A stretch of DNA of 64,000 nucleotides, taken from the NCBI GenBank assembly GCA_030267965.1, contig BRYA01000040.1, positions 57,098 through 121,097 of the forward strand, in the 5' to 3' direction. This DNA is from Triparma columacea. Its lineage: Eukaryota > Sar > Bolidophyceae > Parmales > Triparmaceae. A program made the position numbers and the translations under genes. Positions 3 to 64,000 of the stretch are shown piece after piece; position 1 is the first letter of the stretch, and every line of letters begins with the position of its first letter. A model generated the notes under the pieces. The model was not told where the DNA came from and did not search any database. It worked only from the letters and a program-made list of their open reading frames with translations.

Positions 3-3000
3 AGGCACGTTGCCGAGGTTTTTGACGCCGCAAACTCGGATGACACCCTGCTCCAATGCAATGCGCAGCTGGTATACGCCAGGAGCATGATGGTCCCCCT
101 GAAACAGGAGGAAAAGAAGATGAGGGCGCTTTTCAAGCTGTCGAGGGATGCAACTTTGAAGCTGAAGGACTTGGTCCAAGACGAATTCTCGCCCCTCTAC
201 GTTGCCGCTGCCTCGATCCTTAATGCCGAACTGGGTATGAACCTGCAGGGCGAGAAGGCCAATATTGCATCGTACTTGAACGACGCTCTGAAGATCTGCA
301 AAGATAACGTCTCCGTGTGCAGCAGATCCTCCCTCTCGGCTGTACTCACAAAACTCCGAAACTTCTTCACTTTCCTTCGCGACACTGTCAGGTCGTCCCA
401 ATGTGCCGGGCTGCTGTCGAAGTGCGGGACAGAGCCCAAGCAGGGGGTACTAGAGTTTATTTCGAATGCCTACTTGCATGCGGGTATGAACGACTTGGCT
501 GCCAACATCGATGTGAGTGGTGAGGTCGCAGAAATCGTGCTGAAATTGAGGGAGGACGGATTGGACACAGTTGGAGATTCCATTAAGGGGCTCTACGAGA
601 TGCTAGGTAGCACAGAGGAAGCTGCGGTGCGGGAGGGCGATGAAGGCCTGCAATGGAAGGTTGTCCTGATTTGTGCAGCCCTGAGCGAAGCGGAGGAGAA
701 GAGGGCGAACCCTGCTGAAGCCTTATTTTATACCAGGAAGGCCATCGTTGCTTGTAAGTCGGCCATTAGGGGCGGAGCTGGAAAGAAGTGGGTGGGTGCT
801 CTAGTTGAATCGTTGGCAAACATGGGGAAACTTTGGGGCTTGCTTGGGGACAAACGAAGGGCCGAGGGGTACCTGGTCGCTGCGGGGGAGTGCCTCGGAT
901 TGACGATGGGTGAAGATGACAGTATCGAGGTTATAGATTTGGAGGGAGGGGAGGATGACGGTGAAGGCGAACGCGACGAGACTCTGAGCAGTTTTAAGTA
1001 CGATGTTGTCAGAGATAGGGCTGGCAGCACCAGCAACGATTTGCTCGTCGAGCACGTGAGCAAGAAGATGAGGCTGCTCGCGATGCCTCCCGAGATGACA
1101 GTCGACGTCGCGAAGAAGGAACTAAAAGTTGATCTCTTGAAGGAAGTCAAGAAGATGGACATTGAGAGGAATGTTGAGATCGTGCATGGACTGCTCTCCC
1201 AGGGAGACGCGTTGAGGAGAGTGTGCGAAGGATACGACAACGGTTTTGTGGGCAAGTATAACAGCGCGAGGGGTGTTCTTGACGCTCTGCTGGACGACGA
1301 GCTCGGGAGGCAAGTAGAGAAGGCGGTGGCCACAGTCGGGGTGCTGAGCGTAGATGCTCAGAACCAGGCGGTTGGGAGGCTCGGCAATTTGAAGAGCCAG
1401 GTCGACGTGAGGATTGCACGAGCGATAGAAATTGTAAATGGGTGGGGAGAGGAGGTCGAAAGCATCTACGAATCTGTGAGGGGGAACGAGAAAGGCCGCG
1501 GGAGGGAGAGATCCATGGCCTGCTATAGGTTGGGAAGAGCAATGCTGAAGGCGGGGTGGGAGGAGCTGAGGAACCTTTGGAGTGGGGAGAAACTTGACGA
1601 AGGGGGGGACCTTTGGAAAGCAAGAGAGCTCTTTCTCGAAGCCAGCAAATCCTGTGGGCCTGGAACTAGCAGTTTGGGTCGCAAAATTTACCGCAGCTTA
1701 GCGTTAGTTGCCGGGCCCAAAGGTGACTTCGGAAAGGGGGCGCTTTTGGGAGGTGTGGCAGCTGTGTTCAATCTGCACAAGAGTTTGGGGGCAAGCGTTA
1801 GGATGAACGTTTGGTACAATCTCGGTGGTGAGGATGGTGAAGGTGGTCAGGGCGGCGATGAGGAAGTGAGGAGGGTGTTTGGATTGCTGGACGATCAGAA
1901 GTTGGATTTGAAAGAAGGGGCGCAAGAAATGGAGGGCCTGATTTTGGAGTACCTGCCAGAAGACTGGAATATCATTAACATTGCAGTTTGTCCGAGCGGT
2001 CATATCCTCGTGGGTTCTCTTAAAAAGGAGGGAGGTCGAGTCGTCGGAACCTTGCGGTGCGTCTTTGAAGAGCGCGAGAACGGTGGGAATACGAAGAAGG
2101 ATGAAAAGCACGGAGGGTTTTTGATGAGGAGCTTCGACACCTTGGACCTCTTGCTGGAGAAGAGTAGGAGACAGCTCGATGGTATCGACCCCGTCATGGC
2201 CAGGAAATTTGGGGAGAAGGAAAAAAGGGAGTGGTGGAGGCAGAGGGAGGATATAGACAACGGTTTGAAGAGGTTGATGGAAGATGTGCAAAGGGACTTG
2301 GTGGAGGTTGGCAAGCTTGAAGGCTTATTCGTGCGCGGGGAGAAAGAAGAGGAGGAAGTCGTCGCTGATGACTTGATTAAAAAGTTTGAGGCTGCCTGTG
2401 TCATTGATCTCACCGTTGATAGTGAAGATGAAGAAGGGGAGGAGTTGACTGAGAAGGACATCAAGAAGATGACCGTGCCGGTCTTGAAGGAGAACATCCT
2501 AGAAAGGGACGAAGCTGCCTCCTTGAAGGGACTGAAGAAGGCGGGGTTGCAAAGTCTTCTGCTCAAGATCGTGGAGCAGAGGAATGGCGGTGCCAAGGTG
2601 GAGAAGAAAGTAAAGGAGAGCGCGAGCGGGATGGGCGCTGCTGCCTCTGCTACTGCTGGTAGTGGGGGAGGAGAGAGACGGAGCGGAGACACCAACAATA
2701 CAATTATTCTCACCCTCGACGAACGACTCCAGCGCCTCCCTTGGGAGAGTATGCCTTTGCTCGAGAAGAGATTCGTCTGTCGAGTGCCATCCCTCCCGTT
2801 TGTCCTGTCACCCCTGATTGAAAAAAGGGGCAAAATGACGAAGATCACAAAGAAGAATTGTTTCTACATTCTAGACCCCGAGGCCAACCTTCCTACCACC
2901 AAGAAGACCCTCAATCCGATCCTGGAGAGCTACGCCAGTCAGAAAGGTTGGGGTTGGAAGGGTTACGTCGGAAAGATCCCCGACCTAAGCGTCTTGGAGA

Positions 3001-3449
3001 GGCTCGAAAAGGAGGACGGGTTGATGATTTACTGCGGTCACGGCGGTGCGGAGTGTTGCTTCCCTAGAGTCGAGGTGGAGGAGAGGTTGATGAACAAGAG
3101 GAGGGGGTGCAAAAGTAGCGTGTTTTTATTCGGTTGCAGCAGCGGGAGGCTGAGCAGTGGTGGCGGGGCAAAGAGGGGAATTGGGTCCGCCTTCAAGCAG
3201 ATGGAGTACGAACCTGACGGCGTCGCGACGAGTTACCTCGGTGCAGGTGCGCCGTGTGTGCTCGGGAATCTGTGGGATGTGAGTGACAGGGACATTGACA
3301 GGTTCTGCATTGAGTTTATGGACAAGTTCTTTGGGGGGGATAAAAGTGTGGCCCAGTGCGTCAGTGAGAGCAGGGGTGTCTGCAAGATGCGATATATTGT
3401 TGGGGCAGCAGTTGTAGTTTACGGAGTGCCCATCGTTTTCGGGGGATAG
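3..3449 (+). CDS. ESP1: Separase (ESP1), C-terminal part, gene enters from left edge
   Basis: Separase is the caspase-like cysteine protease (peptidase C50) that cleaves cohesin at anaphase. The reading frame is open to the left edge, so the N-terminus lies outside the window. Counting from the first in-window Met (position 87), 1,120 residues are visible: a long helical region, a SAP-like helical stretch (about residues 790-835), then the protease domain. The catalytic His is in the motif YCGHGG (codon 3039-3041). The catalytic Cys is in FLFGCSSGR (codon 3135-3137), followed by the hallmark PCVLGNLWDVSDRDIDRF. Two SUMO-interacting-motif-like sequences precede the protease (VIDLE near 930 and VIDLTVDSEDEE near 2400). 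The gene converges on the next gene with 90 bp between stops. The call rests on the exact catalytic signatures. Confidence 0.95.
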   Translation, partial: RHVAEVFDAANSDDTLLQCNAQLVYARSMMVPLKQEEKKMRALFKLSRDATLKLKDLVQDEFSPLYVAAASILNAELGMNLQGEKANIASYLNDALKICKDNVSVCSRSSLSAVLTKLRNFFTFLRDTVRSSQCAGLLSKCGTEPKQGVLEFISNAYLHAGMNDLAANIDVSGEVAEIVLKLREDGLDTVGDSIKGLYEMLGSTEEAAVREGDEGLQWKVVLICAALSEAEEKRANPAEALFYTRKAIVACKSAIRGGAGKKWVGALVESLANMGKLWGLLGDKRRAEGYLVAAGECLGLTMGEDDSIEVIDLEGGEDDGEGERDETLSSFKYDVVRDRAGSTSNDLLVEHVSKKMRLLAMPPEMTVDVAKKELKVDLLKEVKKMDIERNVEIVHGLLSQGDALRRVCEGYDNGFVGKYNSARGVLDALLDDELGRQVEKAVATVGVLSVDAQNQAVGRLGNLKSQVDVRIARAIEIVNGWGEEVESIYESVRGNEKGRGRERSMACYRLGRAMLKAGWEELRNLWSGEKLDEGGDLWKARELFLEASKSCGPGTSSLGRKIYRSLALVAGPKGDFGKGALLGGVAAVFNLHKSLGASVRMNVWYNLGGEDGEGGQGGDEEVRRVFGLLDDQKLDLKEGAQEMEGLILEYLPEDWNIINIAVCPSGHILVGSLKKEGGRVVGTLRCVFEERENGGNTKKDEKHGGFLMRSFDTLDLLLEKSRRQLDGIDPVMARKFGEKEKREWWRQREDIDNGLKRLMEDVQRDLVEVGKLEGLFVRGEKEEEEVVADDLIKKFEAACVIDLTVDSEDEEGEELTEKDIKKMTVPVLKENILERDEAASLKGLKKAGLQSLLLKIVEQRNGGAKVEKKVKESASGMGAAASATAGSGGGERRSGDTNNTIILTLDERLQRLPWESMPLLEKRFVCRVPSLPFVLSPLIEKRGKMTKITKKNCFYILDPEANLPTTKKTLNPILESYASQKGWGWKGYVGKIPDLSVLERLEKEDGLMIYCGHGGAECCFPRVEVEERLMNKRRGCKSSVFLFGCSSGRLSSGGGAKRGIGSAFKQMEYEPDGVATSYLGAGAPCVLGNLWDVSDRDIDRFCIEFMDKFFGGDKSVAQCVSESRGVCKMRYIVGAAVVVYGVPIVFGG

Positions 3450-55513: not shown

Positions 55514-58500
55514 ATGGATCGCCGAGTCATGGAACTCAGCGAGGAAATTGGATCGTCAATGCACCAACGCGGGGGAAGCGATCGCGAAGATTCCTCTTTC
55601 AAAGGCATGGAGGGGGAGAAGCCTCCCCACAGGATTGAGGCTCCTCCCGGTGATGGTAGTCAACCAGACGACAACGCATTGAAGCAGCACGATAATGTTC
55701 TGCTGAAGACAACCGAGCCCCCTTCAGGCTCCAATCGCACACCCTCCGCAATATATGGCCCCGTAGATATTGATTACACAGCTCTTGGCCCCAAACAAGT
55801 CGAACTAGTCAAGCTTCTGGATGACCGAGGAGCCGTTGAAGGCCTCACAGACAACTCTACCGGCGTTGACGTGAAGGTTATGGAGCTTGCTGATGTCTTC
55901 CACGATGAGCGCGACAAGATCATTGACTTTCTCCTCACCGATTGTGAGCAGGGCAAGTTCCGAAGGAAGACCCTCCAGGAGTACGACGAAAAGGAAGGAG
56001 TCATTCACAGACTCGTCTACTGGCAGCACTACGGCAGGGGGAATAAGTTCGTCGAATTTCTCCTCAACGTCAAAGCCGTATCTCCTGACGAATCGACGAG
56101 CATTATGGAGTTGACACCCCTTGATGAGGATGACCTTTCTGATGAGGCAGCTGCGATGCCTGTCGAACTTCAAGCGTCAATAAAGACCAAGACTGTCAAA
56201 CAAGGTATCATTAAGGGGGAGCTCAGCTTCACTGATTACGAGTTTGGACAAACTGCAGTCACCGTGGTGGGAACTCTTAAGGCAGAGGAGAGAGCAACAG
56301 AGATGAAATCAGAAGTTGATGTTCGCACAAACAAAAGCTCAAAGAGTGCGCGCCCAAGTTTCAAGAGTGTGCGCCCAAGTTTCAAGAGTGTGCGCCCAAG
56401 TTTCAAGAGTGTGCGCCCTACTTTCAAGAGTGCGAGATCCACGAGATCTAGGGTTGAAGGCAGGAACAGTGGCAGGACCAAGAAGGGAGACGTCAAGGCT
56501 GCCTATACCTCATTGAAGGGAATTCTCAATGAAGCCATGGATGAGTTCAGACAGCCAGCTGTCATTGATGAGAGGAGGAAAAAACACTTTGTGGAGGAGG
56601 TCATGCCCAATGTGCCAACTCTTACTGAGGAAGAGGACAGGATGCTGGAAAGTGTTGCAGGGCTGGAGGAGAAACTCTACAAGAAGGGAAAGAGAGTCAA
56701 GGGGACACTGAAGGAGGGTATTGACAAGTTCCTGTGGAGAGTGGGGGACAATGTGTGGGCAGCCTTTGGGGTCACTGTGGACAAGTCAGCAAAGGATGTA
56801 TTGGCAGATCAATTTCTGTTTGACGCATTTGAGTGGTCAGAGCAGCACTTCAAAAATAATGGGAACTTACCATGGGTGATCAGGAATGATTTTGAGGGAA
56901 CTAGAAGCATGCACTGTCATGTTGGCGTGAAGGTCCCTGCCGCTACCAATCGACTATTTGAGAATTGGTTTGTGTGGAAGGAAGTTAAACTTGAGAATGG
57001 CAAGACTTCCTACATGTTAGCTTTTGTGCCACTGACAGAGTACCCTGGAGGAGGTTTCAAGGATCTCAGTAAGGAAGGATTTGTGCTAGCAGAGACTACA
57101 GGTGTCTACTTCTTCAATGAGATTGCTCCAAATGTCTGCAGGGTGACACGCATTCAGACTGTCGATCTGCATTTCAAAGGCCTTCAAAAGACACTTATGG
57201 ACAATGCTATTGACTACCTTGCAAAGAGTCAGCTTGTTGAGGCCAACAGGTTGCAGGAGAAATTCAAGAGGAACGGGAAGGAAGTTGATGCTGAGGTCAG
57301 GGAGGCCTTGGTGGAGAGGATGAAGGAGGGTGTTGAGTTGGAGGAGGACCAGAAGAAGGTGTTTGTGGAGTTGGAGGAGCTCTTTGGTGGGGAGGAGGAA
57401 GGAGGATGGGGGCATCTTGAGTCACCTTATGAAGGAGTGAAGATGGAGATCAAGTACAAGCAGCAGGAGAAAGGAAAGAAGACACTCGGTTTTGGAAGAG
57501 CCAAGTGTGTTGCCGACTGCTCAGCCGAGGAAGCAGCTGCTTGGTTCTTTGGGTACTGCAGCAGGGAGAGGATGGTAATGAGCCGGGAGGAAGGGCCCCC
57601 TGCAAGGCTGGAGATGAGGAAGGGTGGCAAGGGAAGGATAAATGAGAAGCTGTTTGCAACAGTCAAGAAACTTCGCTTCCCTCTTCACAAAAGAGAGTTT
57701 GTGTTGAGGTTTGTGTGGCAGAGGGGACACCAAGATGGCAACATGTCTGTGGCATTTGTCCCAGCTGAGGAGAAGGTTGACTATGGGGGAAACCTTGGAA
57801 AGCTTGTGCGGGCAACAACTAGTGGAATTTTTACTGCAAAGAACATTGAGGACCAAGGTGGTGTTCACCAGTGTAAACTCACATATACCCAATTTATGGA
57901 TGCAGGGGGGCTCGTTCCAGTAAATGTTGTCAACAGAACAATACCAAGAGGACTAAGAGCAATAGCAACACTCAGGGATTCCTTCAAGCGGGATGAAGAG
58001 GTTGATAAAGCTGCACTGGCCTCTCTTGCCAACATCATCAAGAATGTACATCAAGATTATACAAAAGAGGAGAAGGAAGCAATCAGGAAAGGAAATGAGT
58101 TTTATGAGAAGTGCAAGGAGGATGAAATTTTTGATGAACTGAAGAGTCCTGATGAGAGGGTCAAGATGAAGCTAGTTCATGTTGATGGGGCAAGCAGTGG
58201 GACTGGTTTTGCCACTACTGTGGTTGATGCTAGTGTGGAGGAATGTGCTGCAAGACAAATATCAGTATTGTACAGCAGAGAGACCAGAAATGATTTAAAG
58301 AAATGGGGACTGACTTTCTTAAAAACCATCAATGTGAACCCCCACACTCTCTACTACATCACAACAAGAGACCTTGGTCTCCCTGGTTTTGCTCCTCGTG
58401 ATGGGAGGAGTAAAATTACCTGGTTCAAGGAAGATGACGTCAAAGTCATCATTGACGTTGCAGACACAGAGGAGGTTCAGGTTGACTTTCCAGTGAAGAC

Positions 58501-61500
58501 TGGGAATGTTTTAGTAAAGATTCACACAGTATGGGTGTTTGAGCCACTTGACCCTATTGGAGGTGTGCCACAAACATCAGTCACTTTCACAACAAGGGCA
58601 GATCTTGGTGGTATTTTCTTCTCCTCCATTGTGAACAAGCTTGCACCAAGATTTCTTATGACAGTCTCAGGTTTGAGGAAGAAATTTGACAAAAGCAAAG
58701 AGATTGTACCCTTCAAGAGACAGCGGATAATTGAAAAGTTTGAGGAGATTGCAATTGAGGGAGCACCAGGGATTGAAAGTCATTTTGACGAGATTGATGG
58801 AGCTCAAGATATCAGTAGTGCGTTGTCTGGAACGACGATGATAAAGGCAGAGAAGGGGATGGGATGGGGGAAGACTTCAGTAACTGTGAGAGCATCCCAC
58901 AAGGAAGTTGCAGCGTTCTTTTGGGACTTTGTAAGTGGAGTTGAATCCCAGCTCGAGCTTCACAGAGTTAACAACAACACACTTGTAATCACAGTTGAAC
59001 ACGAAGGACATTTCACAGCTGTAAGGTTCTCAGAGGCTGGCCAGACGAAGACAGATGTTGAAATGATGACTAGACATAAGGGTTTTGGAAAAGCTGCCGG
59101 CAAAAAGAGTGTAATTAAGCACCTGAGCATGGCAACTGATGCTGCTTACTACTTTGACAACCTTCTGAACAGCGCAGAAGCAAGGGAGCAGGATGGGAAG
59201 AGGTTTGGAGAGCAGCTGATGGAGAGAGTGAATAAAAGAAATGTTGGGGACAGCAAGGTAGAGGTCCTAAGGGAATTTATTGCTGCCAATAGGGCACTGA
59301 GAGAGACTACAAAGCAGCATGGTTTCATGAGGACTCTGCTGTATGCTGTTGTAATGAACAAATTTAAAAGGAGAGCAACAAATGAGGGAGAAGTTAAGAG
59401 TGAGGAGGAAGCCAGGGGGTGGGAGATTGGGAGTGCAATGACAGCAGTCATGTTGACCACAGCAACTGCTACTCATGCTGTTGATGAATGGGCACATCAA
59501 TTCACTGAAGTGCAGGAGGTTACGAATGAACAAGAGTGGTTAAGGCCCATGCTTGAGGAGATAGTTATGAAACTATTTATGAAGTCTACCTTAGGCTTAA
59601 AAGCAAGGGTCACTGTTGGTGCTGCAACAAGCATGGTTGATTTGCTGACTGATATTTATGTGACGAACACGTTTTGGAAAGAAAAGAAATATGGGTACTT
59701 TAAGGCATCTTTTGCAAGTTTGGCAGTGTCAATTGGGTTTCAGATGCTTATTGTTTGGGGACAAAATAGGAAGTTGGGGATGATGAAGGTGCTAAGGGAG
59801 TGGATTCCAATCTTGCTTGGGTACAAACCTGCAGTTGATGCCTATAGGGTAGCAACTGGAGCAAAGCAAGAGGTTGGGGTTGCAGTGGAGGCAATAACGG
59901 AAATGACAATTATGAAATGTATAGAGATGTTTGCTGAGACAATCCCTGGGATGATTATCCAACTTATGGCAATAGCAACCAGTGACAAAGATGTTGGAAC
60001 TTCAGCATGGCTTTCAGTTGCAGTGTCAGCGATTACAACAGGCTTTGCCTCTGCAACAATTAGTTATGACTGGGACACAGACCCTGGTAAGAGAGAATAC
60101 ACACCAGACTTTTATGGGTATATTCCAGCAAAAGCAAGCAAGAGAACATTAGTGTTTGTGTCCATGTTGCTGGTGTCAGCAGGGATGCTTCTAATAAGGT
60201 GTACAACAATAGTTCTTCTTGGATTGATGGGAGGTAGGTGGGCCTTTCTCTACATTGGAGCTGACCTTGGTCTGTACTTATTTGTTAAGATATTGAGAGG
60301 AGACTTCTGGTATTGGATGCCATTGGGAGGAAACATAGAGATTGTGAGCAGTATATTTAGTAGAGTGATGGTAAAGGTCATTGTAGACTTTACTTCAATG
60401 GTGCAATTTAGACATCCTAGTGAAGTTGGGGGAGTGTATTGGCTGTTTGGTCTTGTGTTGACCATGGGAAGCCTCCCAGTGTCAATATACGTAGCTTCAC
60501 CTTATTTAGATGATGGAGCAATCGATATTGCATCAACAATTGCAAATGATTTCATACCAATAACTATTCTATGGTTTGCTGCCTTCTTTTTTAACATTGA
60601 GAAGAAGTACTGGCACACCTTCTGGAGTCCACAGAGGTCAAAGGATATGTCAATGGCATTTTTCCTTGAAGGAGAAAATGATGCAACAAAAATAAAAGTG
60701 TTTGCAAACTCCAGGCACCATTGGGTCTCAATTGAAGGAGAAATCAAGAAATGGGTTGAGCTAAATTGGGCTAATTGGGAAGAAGAGAAACCAGAGTGGT
60801 TTACTGATGTCATGAAGGCTAAAGTACCTGAAGACTTCATTCCAGCAGATGGAGATGCGAGAAGGAGAGAGAGTGTGAGGAGAGCAAGTGTTGATGCTGA
60901 AGCTGAGGTTGGTCTAGCAGGTGCTTTGCGAGCAAGTATTAGGAGAGCAAGTGTTGGCTTGGACAATGGAGGCGCAATGGTTTCTTCACATGCTGTGAAT
61001 GATACTACACAAAACTATGAAGGTTTAGATCCTAACAAAATAGGAAAGTTGTTGGGTGAGCAACTGTTGGTTGCATTGAGTTTCAGGAAGAAGGGACTGA
61101 CAAAGGAGGAAGCTGTCAGGTCATTTATTGGGTCAAACTATGTTCTGAGACAGGCTGCAGAGAAATATGTGTTTGTCACACCAATGCTTGGCGCTGTTGT
61201 CAAGAACAAGCTGTGTAAGTTGAGGAAGGTAGGGGGCAAGGCCATAGAGCTGGGGGAGAAGGAGGGAAGGGAGATTGGAGAGTCTCTAGCAAGGAGTTTG
61301 GCTATTAATACTCAGCCAGTTGCTGCAGTTGATGCCTTCATCTTAAATTTCCCTGCTCTACAGGAGCTTGATGAGGAATATGAGTGGTTCAGACCTATGC
61401 TTGAGACAATTAGCTACAGGCTTTTAGAGGAAGTTCCTTGGGGCTTGAAGATGAGGGTGACTGTTGGGGCTATCACTAGTATGGCAGATTTAGTGACAGA

Positions 61501-62908
61501 TGTGTATGTGACGTACATGTTTTGGAGTGACGACAAGGATGGATACTTTAAAGCATCTTTGGCAAGTTTGGCAGTGTCAATAGGGATCCAAATGTTTGTT
61601 GTATTTGTACAGTACAAAAAGTTGGGGATTTTGAGGGTGCTTAGGGAATGGATTCCTATTTTGATTGGCTTTAAGCCAGCATTTGATGCTTACAGGGTAG
61701 CAAAGGGAGAAAAACAAGAGACTGGCCAGTCTTTTGATGCTTTACAAGAGATGACTTTCATAAAAGGGTCTGAGATGTTTGCTGAGGCAATACCAGGTGT
61801 GATAATTCAACTGATGGCAATTGCAACGAGTAATGGAGAGGTTTCAAGAGCATCCTGGTTTTCATTAATTGTGTCAGCTCTGACAACAGGATTCTCATCT
61901 GCATCTATCAGTTATGACTTTGACACCGACCCAGTGAAGAGAGAACAAGTGCCTGACTTCTATGGGTATGTGCCAGCAAATCCCACCAAGAAATCTATCA
62001 TATTTGTTGCACTGATGTTCTTTAGCGCATGTATGCTTGTCATAAGGAGCATGACAATAGTTGTGTTAGGGCTTCTTAGTGGTAGTTGGGTCTCTCTTTA
62101 TATTAGTGCCGACCTTGCTTTATACTTGTTGGTGAAGGTCTTAATAGGAGATTTTTGGTATTGGATACCTATTGGTGGCAATGTAGAAATAGTGAGTAGT
62201 ATTATCTTCAGAGTGACAGTGAAAGTGGTGGGAGATTTCACATCAATTGTTCAATTTAGGCATCCTAATGAGGTTGGAGGGATGTATTGGTTCTTTGGAT
62301 TTGTATTAACAATGGGAAGTCTCCCAGTAGCTATAATTCTAGCTGAAAGTGGAGGTGTTGCAGACGAAGAACTTCCATTTACATGGAAAGTAGTTGGGAT
62401 AGTTCTACCATGTACAGTTGTGTTGTTTGCTGTATTCTTCTTTAACATTGAGAAAAAATATTGGGGCACCTTCTACAGCTTGCAAAGGGGTAAGGACTTG
62501 ACAGTAATGAAGTTTCGAGAGGGTGATGATGATGTAAAAGCAAACTACACCTTTTTGACGTCAAAACATCATTGGAAGGCAATTGAAGAAGAAGTGAAAG
62601 CTTGGGTTGAGGCAAATTGGGATAGGTGGGAGGAGGAGAAGCCAGATTGGTTTGATGAAGGAATGAGAGCAAGAGTGCCAGTTGAATACATTCCAGGAGC
62701 AGGAGATGCTAGAAGGAGAGAGAGTGTGAGGAGAGCAAGTGTTGAAGCTGAAGCTGAAGCTGAAGGTGGTCTAGCAGGTGCTTTGAGATCAAGTCTTAGG
62801 AGACCAAGTGTTGGAGGTGCAGAGGGTGGAGATATTATAGGGGTTGGAGGCGGGAGATATAAAGTAAGCAGTGTTTTGCCCAAAGATGAGGATGATGGGG
62901 GTAACTAA
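55514..62908 (+). CDS. Giant START-like and Xkr-like membrane protein
   Basis: Single exon, 2,464 residues. The N-terminal ~200 residues are hydrophilic with a folded segment near 95-200. KSVRPSF repeats lie at ~275-305. Four regions resemble START/lipid-transfer folds, near 430-570, 620-825, 865-1,060 and 1,085-1,200 (for example SYMLAFVPLTEYPGGGFKD and VRATTSGIFTAKNIEDQGG). Two tandem copies of a ~600-residue unit follow. Each has a helical pre-region, a multi-pass membrane core (1,310-1,700 and 1,920-2,315), and a tail with RRRESVRRASV. Each core contains MFAE[TA]IPG[MV]IIQLMAIATS and a DLxTDxYVT motif, similar in style to XK-related scramblases. Lipid handling or scrambling is inference. 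START-like is likely, Xkr-like is tentative. Confidence 0.7.
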   Translation: MDRRVMELSEEIGSSMHQRGGSDREDSSFKGMEGEKPPHRIEAPPGDGSQPDDNALKQHDNVLLKTTEPPSGSNRTPSAIYGPVDIDYTALGPKQVELVKLLDDRGAVEGLTDNSTGVDVKVMELADVFHDERDKIIDFLLTDCEQGKFRRKTLQEYDEKEGVIHRLVYWQHYGRGNKFVEFLLNVKAVSPDESTSIMELTPLDEDDLSDEAAAMPVELQASIKTKTVKQGIIKGELSFTDYEFGQTAVTVVGTLKAEERATEMKSEVDVRTNKSSKSARPSFKSVRPSFKSVRPSFKSVRPTFKSARSTRSRVEGRNSGRTKKGDVKAAYTSLKGILNEAMDEFRQPAVIDERRKKHFVEEVMPNVPTLTEEEDRMLESVAGLEEKLYKKGKRVKGTLKEGIDKFLWRVGDNVWAAFGVTVDKSAKDVLADQFLFDAFEWSEQHFKNNGNLPWVIRNDFEGTRSMHCHVGVKVPAATNRLFENWFVWKEVKLENGKTSYMLAFVPLTEYPGGGFKDLSKEGFVLAETTGVYFFNEIAPNVCRVTRIQTVDLHFKGLQKTLMDNAIDYLAKSQLVEANRLQEKFKRNGKEVDAEVREALVERMKEGVELEEDQKKVFVELEELFGGEEEGGWGHLESPYEGVKMEIKYKQQEKGKKTLGFGRAKCVADCSAEEAAAWFFGYCSRERMVMSREEGPPARLEMRKGGKGRINEKLFATVKKLRFPLHKREFVLRFVWQRGHQDGNMSVAFVPAEEKVDYGGNLGKLVRATTSGIFTAKNIEDQGGVHQCKLTYTQFMDAGGLVPVNVVNRTIPRGLRAIATLRDSFKRDEEVDKAALASLANIIKNVHQDYTKEEKEAIRKGNEFYEKCKEDEIFDELKSPDERVKMKLVHVDGASSGTGFATTVVDASVEECAARQISVLYSRETRNDLKKWGLTFLKTINVNPHTLYYITTRDLGLPGFAPRDGRSKITWFKEDDVKVIIDVADTEEVQVDFPVKTGNVLVKIHTVWVFEPLDPIGGVPQTSVTFTTRADLGGIFFSSIVNKLAPRFLMTVSGLRKKFDKSKEIVPFKRQRIIEKFEEIAIEGAPGIESHFDEIDGAQDISSALSGTTMIKAEKGMGWGKTSVTVRASHKEVAAFFWDFVSGVESQLELHRVNNNTLVITVEHEGHFTAVRFSEAGQTKTDVEMMTRHKGFGKAAGKKSVIKHLSMATDAAYYFDNLLNSAEAREQDGKRFGEQLMERVNKRNVGDSKVEVLREFIAANRALRETTKQHGFMRTLLYAVVMNKFKRRATNEGEVKSEEEARGWEIGSAMTAVMLTTATATHAVDEWAHQFTEVQEVTNEQEWLRPMLEEIVMKLFMKSTLGLKARVTVGAATSMVDLLTDIYVTNTFWKEKKYGYFKASFASLAVSIGFQMLIVWGQNRKLGMMKVLREWIPILLGYKPAVDAYRVATGAKQEVGVAVEAITEMTIMKCIEMFAETIPGMIIQLMAIATSDKDVGTSAWLSVAVSAITTGFASATISYDWDTDPGKREYTPDFYGYIPAKASKRTLVFVSMLLVSAGMLLIRCTTIVLLGLMGGRWAFLYIGADLGLYLFVKILRGDFWYWMPLGGNIEIVSSIFSRVMVKVIVDFTSMVQFRHPSEVGGVYWLFGLVLTMGSLPVSIYVASPYLDDGAIDIASTIANDFIPITILWFAAFFFNIEKKYWHTFWSPQRSKDMSMAFFLEGENDATKIKVFANSRHHWVSIEGEIKKWVELNWANWEEEKPEWFTDVMKAKVPEDFIPADGDARRRESVRRASVDAEAEVGLAGALRASIRRASVGLDNGGAMVSSHAVNDTTQNYEGLDPNKIGKLLGEQLLVALSFRKKGLTKEEAVRSFIGSNYVLRQAAEKYVFVTPMLGAVVKNKLCKLRKVGGKAIELGEKEGREIGESLARSLAINTQPVAAVDAFILNFPALQELDEEYEWFRPMLETISYRLLEEVPWGLKMRVTVGAITSMADLVTDVYVTYMFWSDDKDGYFKASLASLAVSIGIQMFVVFVQYKKLGILRVLREWIPILIGFKPAFDAYRVAKGEKQETGQSFDALQEMTFIKGSEMFAEAIPGVIIQLMAIATSNGEVSRASWFSLIVSALTTGFSSASISYDFDTDPVKREQVPDFYGYVPANPTKKSIIFVALMFFSACMLVIRSMTIVVLGLLSGSWVSLYISADLALYLLVKVLIGDFWYWIPIGGNVEIVSSIIFRVTVKVVGDFTSIVQFRHPNEVGGMYWFFGFVLTMGSLPVAIILAESGGVADEELPFTWKVVGIVLPCTVVLFAVFFFNIEKKYWGTFYSLQRGKDLTVMKFREGDDDVKANYTFLTSKHHWKAIEEEVKAWVEANWDRWEEEKPDWFDEGMRARVPVEYIPGAGDARRRESVRRASVEAEAEAEGGLAGALRSSLRRPSVGGAEGGDIIGVGGGRYKVSSVLPKDEDDGGN
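56335..56430 (+). repeat. 21-bp tandem repeat encoding KSVRPSF
   Basis: Four to five copies of a 21-bp unit (GTGCGCCCAAGTTTCAAGA) lie in the giant gene. They create a basic Ser-rich segment that could be phosphorylated. Confidence 0.85.
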
Positions 62909-62989
62909 TAGGGCAGCAACATTTGTAGGATAAATTGATTTGATTTGGTAGTTATAATTATTGTGTGTGTTTTAGGTGAATGTTAAATA

Positions 62990-63860
62990 ATATGGGAGTG
63001 TTATAGTGGTTTGTGAGTATAATGGGAGTTTAGTAGATGTGTATGGAGTTTTGAGGAATTGTGGAATGTTATAGTGATTTGTGAGTATAATAGAGATGTA
63101 GTAGATATGTATGGGGATAAATAAAAGGAAGGAGGGTGTGGTTGTGGAGAGGAGAGAGAGGAATTAAGGAGGGAGGGTAGAAAAAAGGAGGTGTAAGGTG
63201 GAAGGATGTGTGTAAGTGTAGTAGGTGTGGATGAAGATAATGAGGAAGAGTGAGTGTGGTTGTGGAAAGGAGTGAGGGGATTAAATAGTGAGAGTAAAAG
63301 AGAGGAGGGTATAAGATGGAATGATGTGTGTGAGTGTAGTTGATGTGTATGAAGATGAATTAAAGGATGGTGAGTGTAGATGTGGAGAGAAGTGAGAGAA
63401 GTGAGAGGAGTGAAGGAGTGAGAGTAGAAGAGAGGAGGGTATAAGATGGAATGGTGTGTGTAAGTGTAGTAGATGTGTATGAAGATGAATTAAATGAGGG
63501 TGAGTGTAGATTTTGAGATGAGTGAAAGGAGTAAAGGAAGGAGATAAGAAGAGAAGAGAGTATAAGATGGAATGATGTGTATAAGTGTAGTAGATGTGTA
63601 TGTAGATGAATTAAATGAGAGTGAGTGTAGTTTTAGAGAGGAGTGAAAGAAGTTAAGGAGAAAGAGTAGAAAAGAGGAGGGTATAAGGTGGAATGATGTG
63701 TGTAAGTGTAGTAGATGTGTATGAAGATAAATAAAAGGAGGTTAAGAGTAGTTGTGAAGAGGAGTGAGAGGAGTGAAATTGGAGAGTAGAAGAGAGGAGG
63801 GTATGAGGTGATATAGTGTGTGTGTGTTTGTAAGTGTGTTTGAAGATGTGAATGTATGTG
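62990..63860 (+). repeat. ~121-bp degenerate tandem repeat array
   Basis: A landmark AGTGTAGTAGATGTGTAT (with variants) recurs at about 63,215, 63,333, 63,463, 63,584, 63,705 and 63,833, a spacing of 118-130 bp. Each unit also carries GAGGAGGGTATAAG and a GAGTGAGAGGAG-like segment. About seven units are visible. Confidence 0.8.
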
Positions 63861-63929
63861 TGTGTGTTGGTGTAAGGGTAAGGTGTGTGTAAAGATAGAG
63901 TTTGTAAATGATGTAAAGGGTGTAAGGGG

Positions 63930-64000
63930 TGTAAAGAAAGTAAAGGGTGTAAAGGGTGTAAAGGGTGTAAAGGGTGTAAAGGGTGTAAAGGGTGTAAAGG
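63930..64000 (+). repeat. 9-bp satellite (TGTAAAGGG)n reaching the right edge
   Basis: About seven perfect TGTAAAGGG units follow degenerate ones from ~63,909. The array runs off the window. It is not the common TTAGGG telomere repeat but is likewise G-rich and C-free. Confidence 0.9.

What the first reader, a model, noticed from the sequence alone, without database searches (positions are those of the whole stretch)
62921..64000. 1,080 consecutive bases without a single cytosine on the + strand
I read every row: after position 62,920 the + strand has only A, G and T. The G content is high, so C survives on the other strand only. This cannot be chance, and the sequence is not one simple repeat. 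Orientation fits the G-strand of a right chromosome end. One hypothesis is that repeated exposure of the 3' G-strand as ssDNA (end resection or R-loops), with C deamination, has erased C from this strand. Selection for a C-free G-strand is an alternative.
Basis: partly seen in the sequence, partly recalled or inferred. Interest (0 to 1): 0.92.

Follow-up and report, generated by a model that had tools for sequence, protein, structure and literature searches.

The report
Cytosine-poor strand at chromosome ends
In a tiny marine alga related to diatoms, the last kilobase before many telomeres has almost no cytosine on one strand although its repeats have diverged by about 20%, so something keeps removing cytosine from that strand; single-strand exposure is a likely cause, not yet proven.

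Summary
In detail: bases 62,921-64,000 hold no C, and the window stops exactly at a contig end (C40, 121,097 bp). Related sequence lies at other contig ends with the G-rich strand running 5'->3' outwards; in 11 of 12 TTAGGG-capped ends that I read, C-poor DNA adjoins the telomere repeats, the twelfth is ordinary DNA. So this is a subtelomere, probably of a parmalean alga (nearest named proteins: Triparma columacea). It has a short single-copy part, degenerate ~121-bp units and (TGTAAAGGG)n. This end is the extreme: it alone of 26 zones has no C at all. The sequence is not frozen: 102 units have median pairwise identity 0.80, yet C is 28 of 11,943 bases, and variants to C are about nine times rarer than matching variants. 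Cytosine is thus continually purged from the outward strand.

The parts
55514..62908 (+). Open reading frame, 2,464 aa, pointing to the contig end; internally duplicated, with an XK-related (PF09815) match; member of a large gene family found near contig ends
   Evidence: ORF; Pfam E 4.5e-06, 26.3 bits, cutoff 24.8; second match of the same region to the protein's earlier half; 67 copies scored of 786 first-look candidates
62911..62930 (+). Conserved 20-bp motif after the stop codon that keeps its three C's; last C of the window at 62920
   Evidence: position; 23 fetched ends, up to 4 mismatches; 212 copies in the genome with at most 1 mismatch, 0 for the reversed pattern
62921..64000 (+). C-free zone on the outward-running G strand, reaching the contig end
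62931..63096 (+). Single-copy proximal part of the zone; homologous parts at other ends hold about 0.5-3% C
63097..63804 (+). Degenerate tandem array, period about 121 bp, 5.8 copies
   Evidence: one search found 109 such units in 23 ends, 102 of them full-length
63903..64000 (+). (TGTAAAGGG)n array, 10.9 copies; at some other ends (e.g. L018, L021) it stands directly inside TTAGGG

Best explanation
The stretch is the terminal subtelomere of an alga chromosome: a telomere-facing gene, then about 1 kb of C-free G-strand DNA (short unique part, ~121-bp units, 9-bp repeats), then, at comparable ends, TTAGGG. Shown: location at a contig end, orientation, recurrence at other ends, and continuing removal of C from the outward G strand while A, G and T keep changing. 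Inferred: this strand is repeatedly single-stranded, through 5' resection when ends erode before telomerase re-caps them and/or through R-loops of an outward transcript; C's that arise there are lost through unrepaired damage, while the neighbouring gene and short functional motifs keep theirs by purifying selection and exchange between ends.
For: Chromosome end: window = C40:57098-121097 of 121,097; 60 related places, those on the - strand within the first 2.1 kb of contigs, those on the + strand at the contig end in the seven contigs fetched; 11 of 12 TTAGGG-capped ends read have 0-14 C in the 300 bases before the array. Purge: 102 full-length units, C 28/11,943, median identity 0.80, A/G differences 71,997 vs C/T 1,203 over all pairs; in columns with one base at 85% or more, A>G 40, G>A 63, but T>C 4.5 per 1000; A>T 20 vs A>C 2.2; G>T 12 vs G>C 1.4; the 28 C's stand in 22 columns, 16 single and 6 double, so they look young. 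Direction: pooled over 21 ends, C is 6-11% in the last 200 coding bases, 7% in the motif bin, then 2.8, 1.0 and 0.4-1.5%, and 0-0.3% from 450 to 1,100 bp out. Coding third positions, 24 ends: C3/(C3+T3) 0.56 at 5-5.5 kb (6 ends) to 0.26 in the last 500 bases, not strictly monotone; correlation with distance p<0.05 in 17 of 24; 4-fold C 0.20 (4.5 kb) to 0.09. In the window's own gene 0.63 to 0.13 (last bin 4 of 30), while 20 interior ORFs have 0.48-0.77 on their coding strand. Telomere repeats begin at different points of the zone, as erosion and re-capping would give. Precedent: yeast cdc13-1 ends (PMC6527239, PMC3521656, passages).
Against: G also falls at coding third positions (p<0.05 in 12 of 24 ends), and part of the coding decline is a CpG effect. 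T>C equals A>G (35 vs 37 per 1000, 24 cells each) at 4-fold sites in the last 1.5 kb of coding (C/T against A/G pair differences there 0.082 to 0.127), so the purge nearly stops at the gene. C in the proximal zone does not depend on distance to the contig end. Changed motif C's: A 17, T 6, G 1. The zone has less T than A. Two ends have C-bearing sequence outside the zone (L022, L027), and a C-containing 37-bp element is little changed at 20 places (which could only find copies with up to 3 mismatches; L022 has a decayed one). No transcript or ssDNA data.
Confidence: 0.45

Rival explanations
1. Selection, not mutation: a C-free G strand is needed in the terminal non-coding DNA, for instance so that the 3' strand or a telomeric transcript cannot form G-C hairpins, stays a good telomerase primer, or binds telomeric single-strand proteins. 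Variants to C are made at the normal rate and removed.
For: The purge nearly stops at the gene's 3' end and does not follow distance to the contig end; variants to C are rare from every source base alike, about nine-fold; G stays near 38% in the zone although 4-fold sites in the last kilobase of coding hold 11-18% G.
Against: It needs effective selection against single C's at about a thousand positions on many ends; the graded rise of C inwards and the C-poor third positions are not predicted; L050 shows TTAGGG standing on ordinary C-rich DNA.
Confidence: 0.33
2. Ordinary replication or transcription strand asymmetry: the G strand would be the lagging-strand template of an outward fork and the non-template strand of an outward-facing gene, so C>T is favoured without special end biology.
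For: The scored copies of the gene family lie on the - strand near contig starts or on the + strand, that is, facing outwards wherever the contig end is known; skews at chromosome ends have been explained this way in Encephalitozoon cuniculi (PMC4704409, passages).
Against: Such effects are expected to be mild over whole genes or replicons; here C is near zero in the outer zone while the T>C/A>G balance is normal in the adjoining coding part, and interior + strand ORFs keep C3/Y3 0.48-0.77.
Confidence: 0.12
3. Common descent only: all ends copy a young C-free repeat that spreads by recombination, and too little time has passed for C to appear.
For: The zones are homologous, built of tandem units, and disjoint nearest pairs of units have median identity 0.93 (identical pairs left out).
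Against: Divergence is high (median 0.80), and even the 51 disjoint nearest pairs hold 335 A/G but 11 C/T differences; L052, which has neither a gene-family nor a unit match, is C-poor too (17 C in 640).
Confidence: 0.07

Closest known systems
Subtelomeric / telomere-associated tandem repeats (such as yeast X and Y' elements; recalled)
   Same: Repeats at many ends between a gene family and the telomere, in one orientation
   Different: Near-absence of C from the outward strand despite 20% divergence between units; I recall no such case
GC-skewed human subtelomeres prone to TERRA R-loops (PMC5286223, passages)
   Same: Positive GC skew on the strand running to the telomere, just inside TTAGGG
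   Different: In human ends the skew is variable and not present at all of them; here it is near absolute. No transcript data here
Strand-asymmetric chromosome ends of Encephalitozoon cuniculi (PMC4704409, passages)
   Same: Skew at chromosome ends, attributed there to asymmetric mutation by replication or transcription
   Different: There a skew, here near-exclusion of one base
Hypermutation of resected subtelomeric ssDNA in yeast cdc13-1 (PMC3521656, PMC6527239, passages)
   Same: The 3' strand at chromosome ends mutates, chiefly at C under the agents tested; resection spans several kilobases
   Different: Experimental, in mutants and with added agents; here it would be natural and long-term, and C>T dominance is not shown

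Membership tests
Subtelomeric (telomere-associated) tandem repeat | Lies directly inside telomere repeats at several chromosome ends in one orientation | tested here: met
   11 of 12 TTAGGG-capped ends read have C-poor DNA next to the array; in the window's own contig the sequence stops in the 9-bp repeats before any TTAGGG
Subtelomeric (telomere-associated) tandem repeat | Tandem units shared between ends | tested here: met
   109 units in 23 ends, 102 full-length
Telomere repeat proper (TTAGGG) | Perfect short telomerase repeat | tested here: not met
   No TTAGGG in 62921-64000; TTAGGG not enriched in 24 pooled zones (7 seen, 9.1 expected)
ssDNA cytosine-damage footprint | Strand-specific loss of C | tested here: met
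ssDNA cytosine-damage footprint | C>T is the dominant fate of C | tested here: inconclusive
   Where C occurs in the proximal zone the commonest other base is T in 24 of 36 columns (T is also the commonest base there), but changed motif C's became A 17, T 6, G 1
ssDNA cytosine-damage footprint | Graded with distance from the end | tested here: inconclusive
   Graded in coding and in pooled noncoding data, but not with distance to the contig end across 21 ends
TERRA / R-loop forming subtelomere | Outward G-rich transcript hybridised to the C strand | not testable with these tools
   Sequence skew only; no RNA or hybrid data
RIP-like or CpG-methylation decay | C>T on both strands, or limited to CpG | tested here: not met
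   G stays near 38% in the zone. A CpG component does exist in the coding part: C3/(C3+T3) before G is 0.07 near and 0.19 far

The most novel reading that the evidence does not exclude
Chromosome ends of this alga are natural, genome-wide recorders of single-strand exposure: the outward G strand of the last kilobase is so often unpaired that one base, C, is erased from it nearly for good, extending the C-free rule of the telomere repeat into complex DNA.
Probability: 0.4. Interest if true: 0.78.

Novelty: new variant of a known kind. Interest (0 to 1): 0.62.

Why it matters
Near-loss of one base from one strand over a kilobase of complex, diverging DNA at many chromosome ends goes far beyond the usual GC skew. 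If mutational, it would let one read from a genome sequence how far and how often chromosome ends become single-stranded in nature, which I know only from experiments with mutants. If selective, it would reveal an unknown demand on the DNA next to telomeres.

Tried and rejected
Assembly or chemistry artefact (bisulfite-like): rejected, since the adjoining gene and one telomeric end keep C and the copies differ from each other.

Degenerate TTAGGG origin: TTAGGG, GTTAGG and GGGTTA are not enriched in 24 pooled zones (7, 8, 5 seen; 9.1, 20.7, 11.5 expected); rejected as main origin.

Distance to the contig end as the only driver: tested with 21 ends, not supported. Other genes as independent tests: the unrelated gene of L019 has C3/Y3 0.27 in its last 600 bases and 0.35-0.51 further in; L030 shows no clear trend.

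Literature: no paper on parmalean telomeres (0 papers); no paper on cytosine-free subtelomeres recognised in the listings; a karyotype search was swamped by unrelated papers, a search for small stramenopile chromosomes gave nothing on this group in its listing. PMC10328945 has 0 occurrences of 'telomer' and 'chromosom' in its main text (passages). PMC7427184 was read whole. The other papers cited were seen as passages.

Rows dropped: L022 and L027 from the pooled composition, because C-containing sequence follows the zone there (their zones hold 43 C in 894 and 61 C in 1,826); L027 also's noncoding alignment, both's correlation; identical pairs's nearest pairs; ends with more than 3,000 N from the motif and unit scans; ends without a clear gene-family match (L019 and others), or with only partial or weak ones (L035, L038, L041). 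In-frame stops skipped: L025 1, L030 3, L032 1. One search measures distance from the last matched coding base, which in L031, L043 and L046 need not be the gene's stop. The variant thresholds differ: 85%, 70%.

Full report
WHAT IS THERE. From 62,921 to 64,000 the + strand has no C. The window is G000:C40:57098-121097 and the contig is 121,097 bases long, so the C-free stretch runs to the contig end. Inside it lies a 2,464-aa reading frame (55,514-62,908, +), internally duplicated, with a weak XK-related match; a relative at another end (L030) has a START domain. After its stop comes a 20-bp motif (62,911-62,930) holding the last C's, then a single-copy part, then degenerate ~121-bp units (63,097-63,804) and a 9-bp array (63,903-64,000).

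WHOSE GENOME. G000 has 37.85 Mb in 789 contigs. Of the 120 protein relatives listed (238 found), three bear an organism name, all Triparma columacea, 54-61% identical; the order Parmales is my inference from that. Parmalean drafts have 31.0-43.6 Mb (PMC10328945, passages).

IT IS A CHROMOSOME END. A search with 62,700-64,000 gave 60 places (best candidates only); those on the - strand lie in the first 2.1 kb of contigs, those on the + strand at the contig end in the seven contigs that I fetched. I oriented the ends so that the contig end is on the right. TTAGGG arrays close 12 of the ends read; in 11 the 300 bases before the array hold 0-14 C, in one (C71 right, L050) 86 C, ordinary DNA. Of these 12, six were not chosen by similarity to the zone (L030, L049-L053): five of six are C-poor. 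Of the starts of contigs C1-C20, taken by number, ten had readable terminal bases; four of the ten (C2, C4, C8, C15) have a C-free run of 75 or more within 300 bases of the end, two (C3, C18) end in or near a copy of the gene family, four show neither.

NOT WHOLLY C-FREE ELSEWHERE. Of 26 zones measured, this window's is the only one with no C at all. Among the others, 23 hold 1-17 C (0.1-2.8%), and L022 and L027, which have other sequence outside the zone, 4.8% and 3.3%; the 24 zones without those two hold 142 C in 21,276 bases, 0.67%.

C IS BEING REMOVED, NOT JUST ABSENT. I found 109 units in 23 ends and used the 102 full-length ones. Median pairwise identity is 0.80, C is 28 of 11,943 bases. 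Over all pairs there are 71,997 A/G and 1,203 C/T differences. Scaled by base content, in pairs 0.90-0.999 identical, A/G differences are 0.059 per A+G and C/T 0.0032 per C+T. In columns where one base holds 85% or more, variants per 1000 are A>G 40, G>A 63, T>C 4.5; A>T 20, A>C 2.2; G>T 12, G>C 1.4. The C's stand singly (16 columns) or in twos (6 columns). A young, merely C-free repeat would not give these numbers: C's seem to arise and disappear. As a control, 4-fold sites in the last 1.5 kb of coding at 18 ends show T>C 35 and A>G 37 per 1000 (24 cells each), and pair differences of 0.082 per C+T against 0.127 per A+G.

WHERE THE LOSS BEGINS. Pooled over 21 ends and aligned at the motif, C is 6-22% in the last kilobase of coding (6-11% in the last 200 bases), 7% in the motif bin, then 2.8, 1.0, 0.6, 0.5, 0.6, 0.7, 1.5, 0.4% and 0-0.3% from 450 to 1,100 bp, with up to 1.4% in small bins further out. 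In coding, third-position C/(C+T) is 0.56 at 5-5.5 kb from the stop (6 ends), 0.38-0.44 at 4-5 kb, 0.24-0.40 between 0.5 and 4 kb, not monotone, and 0.26 in the last 500 bases (24 ends); the correlation with distance is positive in 23 of 24 ends (0.00 in one) and p<0.05 in 17. G/(G+A) also falls, p<0.05 in 12 of 24. At 4-fold sites C and G are alike at 4-5 kb (0.17-0.20 and 0.16-0.21), and C is lower than G within 2 kb (0.07-0.10 against 0.11-0.21) and at 3-4 kb. Part of the coding decline is CpG decay: C before G 0.19 far, 0.07 near; C before A (0.61 to 0.39) and before C (0.42 to 0.28) fall too, C before T little (0.56 to 0.51). Leucine CTR/(CTR+TTR), a synonymous C/T choice at the first codon position, is 0.43 at 3-5 kb and 0.34 under 3 kb; 16 interior ORFs 0.48. 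In those 16 interior ORFs third-position C shows no common slope: the last third is lower than the first in 9 and higher in 7.

RESULTS AGAINST THE SIMPLE MUTATION STORY. The strong change sits at the gene's 3' end, whatever the distance to the contig end (256-1,522 bases): rho 0.10, p 0.67, 21 ends. The zone is richer in A than T. In the 20-bp motif, 24 copies differ at one of its three C's: 17 to A, 6 to T, 1 to G, against 5 at two of its G's; at least two of these copies are internal to contigs, and the changes may be few events copied many times. A C-containing 37-bp element is little changed at 20 places: its C's are altered in three copies (two to T, one to A); that search admits at most 3 mismatches, and L022 holds a decayed copy. 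Two ends (L022, L027) have C-bearing sequence outside the zone.

HOW IT MOST LIKELY WORKS. Shown: end position, orientation, recurrence, continuing loss of C from one strand. Inferred: the 3' G strand of the outermost non-coding DNA is often single-stranded. Resection over several kilobases exposes such strands in yeast cdc13-1, where C is the base most often mutated under oxidative stress, and deaminating agents cause clustered mutations; GC-skewed subtelomeres form R-loops in human cells. A C-free zone would favour R-loops further, so the state could reinforce itself. Telomere repeats begin at different points of the zone, which fits erosion and re-capping. Selection for a C-free strand explains the boundary at the gene at least as well, and I cannot exclude it; the two can act together.

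KNOWN OR NEW. Subtelomeric repeats and skewed chromosome ends are known kinds. Near-exclusion of a base from one strand of complex DNA at many ends was not recognised in the listings of the searches named, which are not exhaustive. I file it as a new variant of a known kind.

Noticed in passing
G000 contigs C70 (75,484 bp), C71 (84,296 bp); also C8, C97, C126, C147, C152, C186, C263, C327, C336: C70 and C71 carry TTAGGG at both ends, and nine more contigs have the gene family, the zone, the motif or the 9-bp repeats near both ends. With 944 TTAGGGx5 matches (the first 100 fall on 17 ends, so roughly 160 capped ends by extrapolation) and 212 motif copies, the genome may consist of a hundred or more chromosomes of roughly 70-130 kb. 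Four of eight parmalean drafts have N50 73-83 kb.
   Followed up: partly
L050 (C71 right end): TTAGGG stands directly on ordinary C-rich DNA: looks like a recently healed chromosome end.
   Followed up: partly
e.g. G000:C22:760-796, C26:59-95, C159:291-327: A 37-bp element with its C's mostly intact at 20 places, 15 of them within 1.2 kb of a contig start, in C-poor surroundings where I could see them; its AACCGTTA resembles a Myb-type binding site (recalled). Could be a telomere-protein site.
   Followed up: partly
window 55514-62908 and the list: Very large gene family near contig ends (67 copies scored, 786 first-look candidates) with XK-related and, in a relative, START matches.
   Followed up: partly
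L019:1672-5622 (-): An unrelated gene with ephrin-receptor-like repeats occupies the same outward-facing slot and has the 3' motif and a C-poor zone after it.
   Followed up: partly
L022, last 150 bases: Tandem array with both telomere strands in one unit (about TTAGATGCCTAACCCAGG), like a fused or inverted telomere remnant.
   Followed up: no
coding parts of the fetched ends: CpG is strongly reduced in subtelomeric coding sequence: CGR/(CGR+AGR) for arginine 0.03 in the last kilobase against 0.16 in 16 interior ORFs.
   Followed up: no
window 87-3449 (+): Separase-like protein (Peptidase_C50, E 1.4e-54).
   Followed up: no
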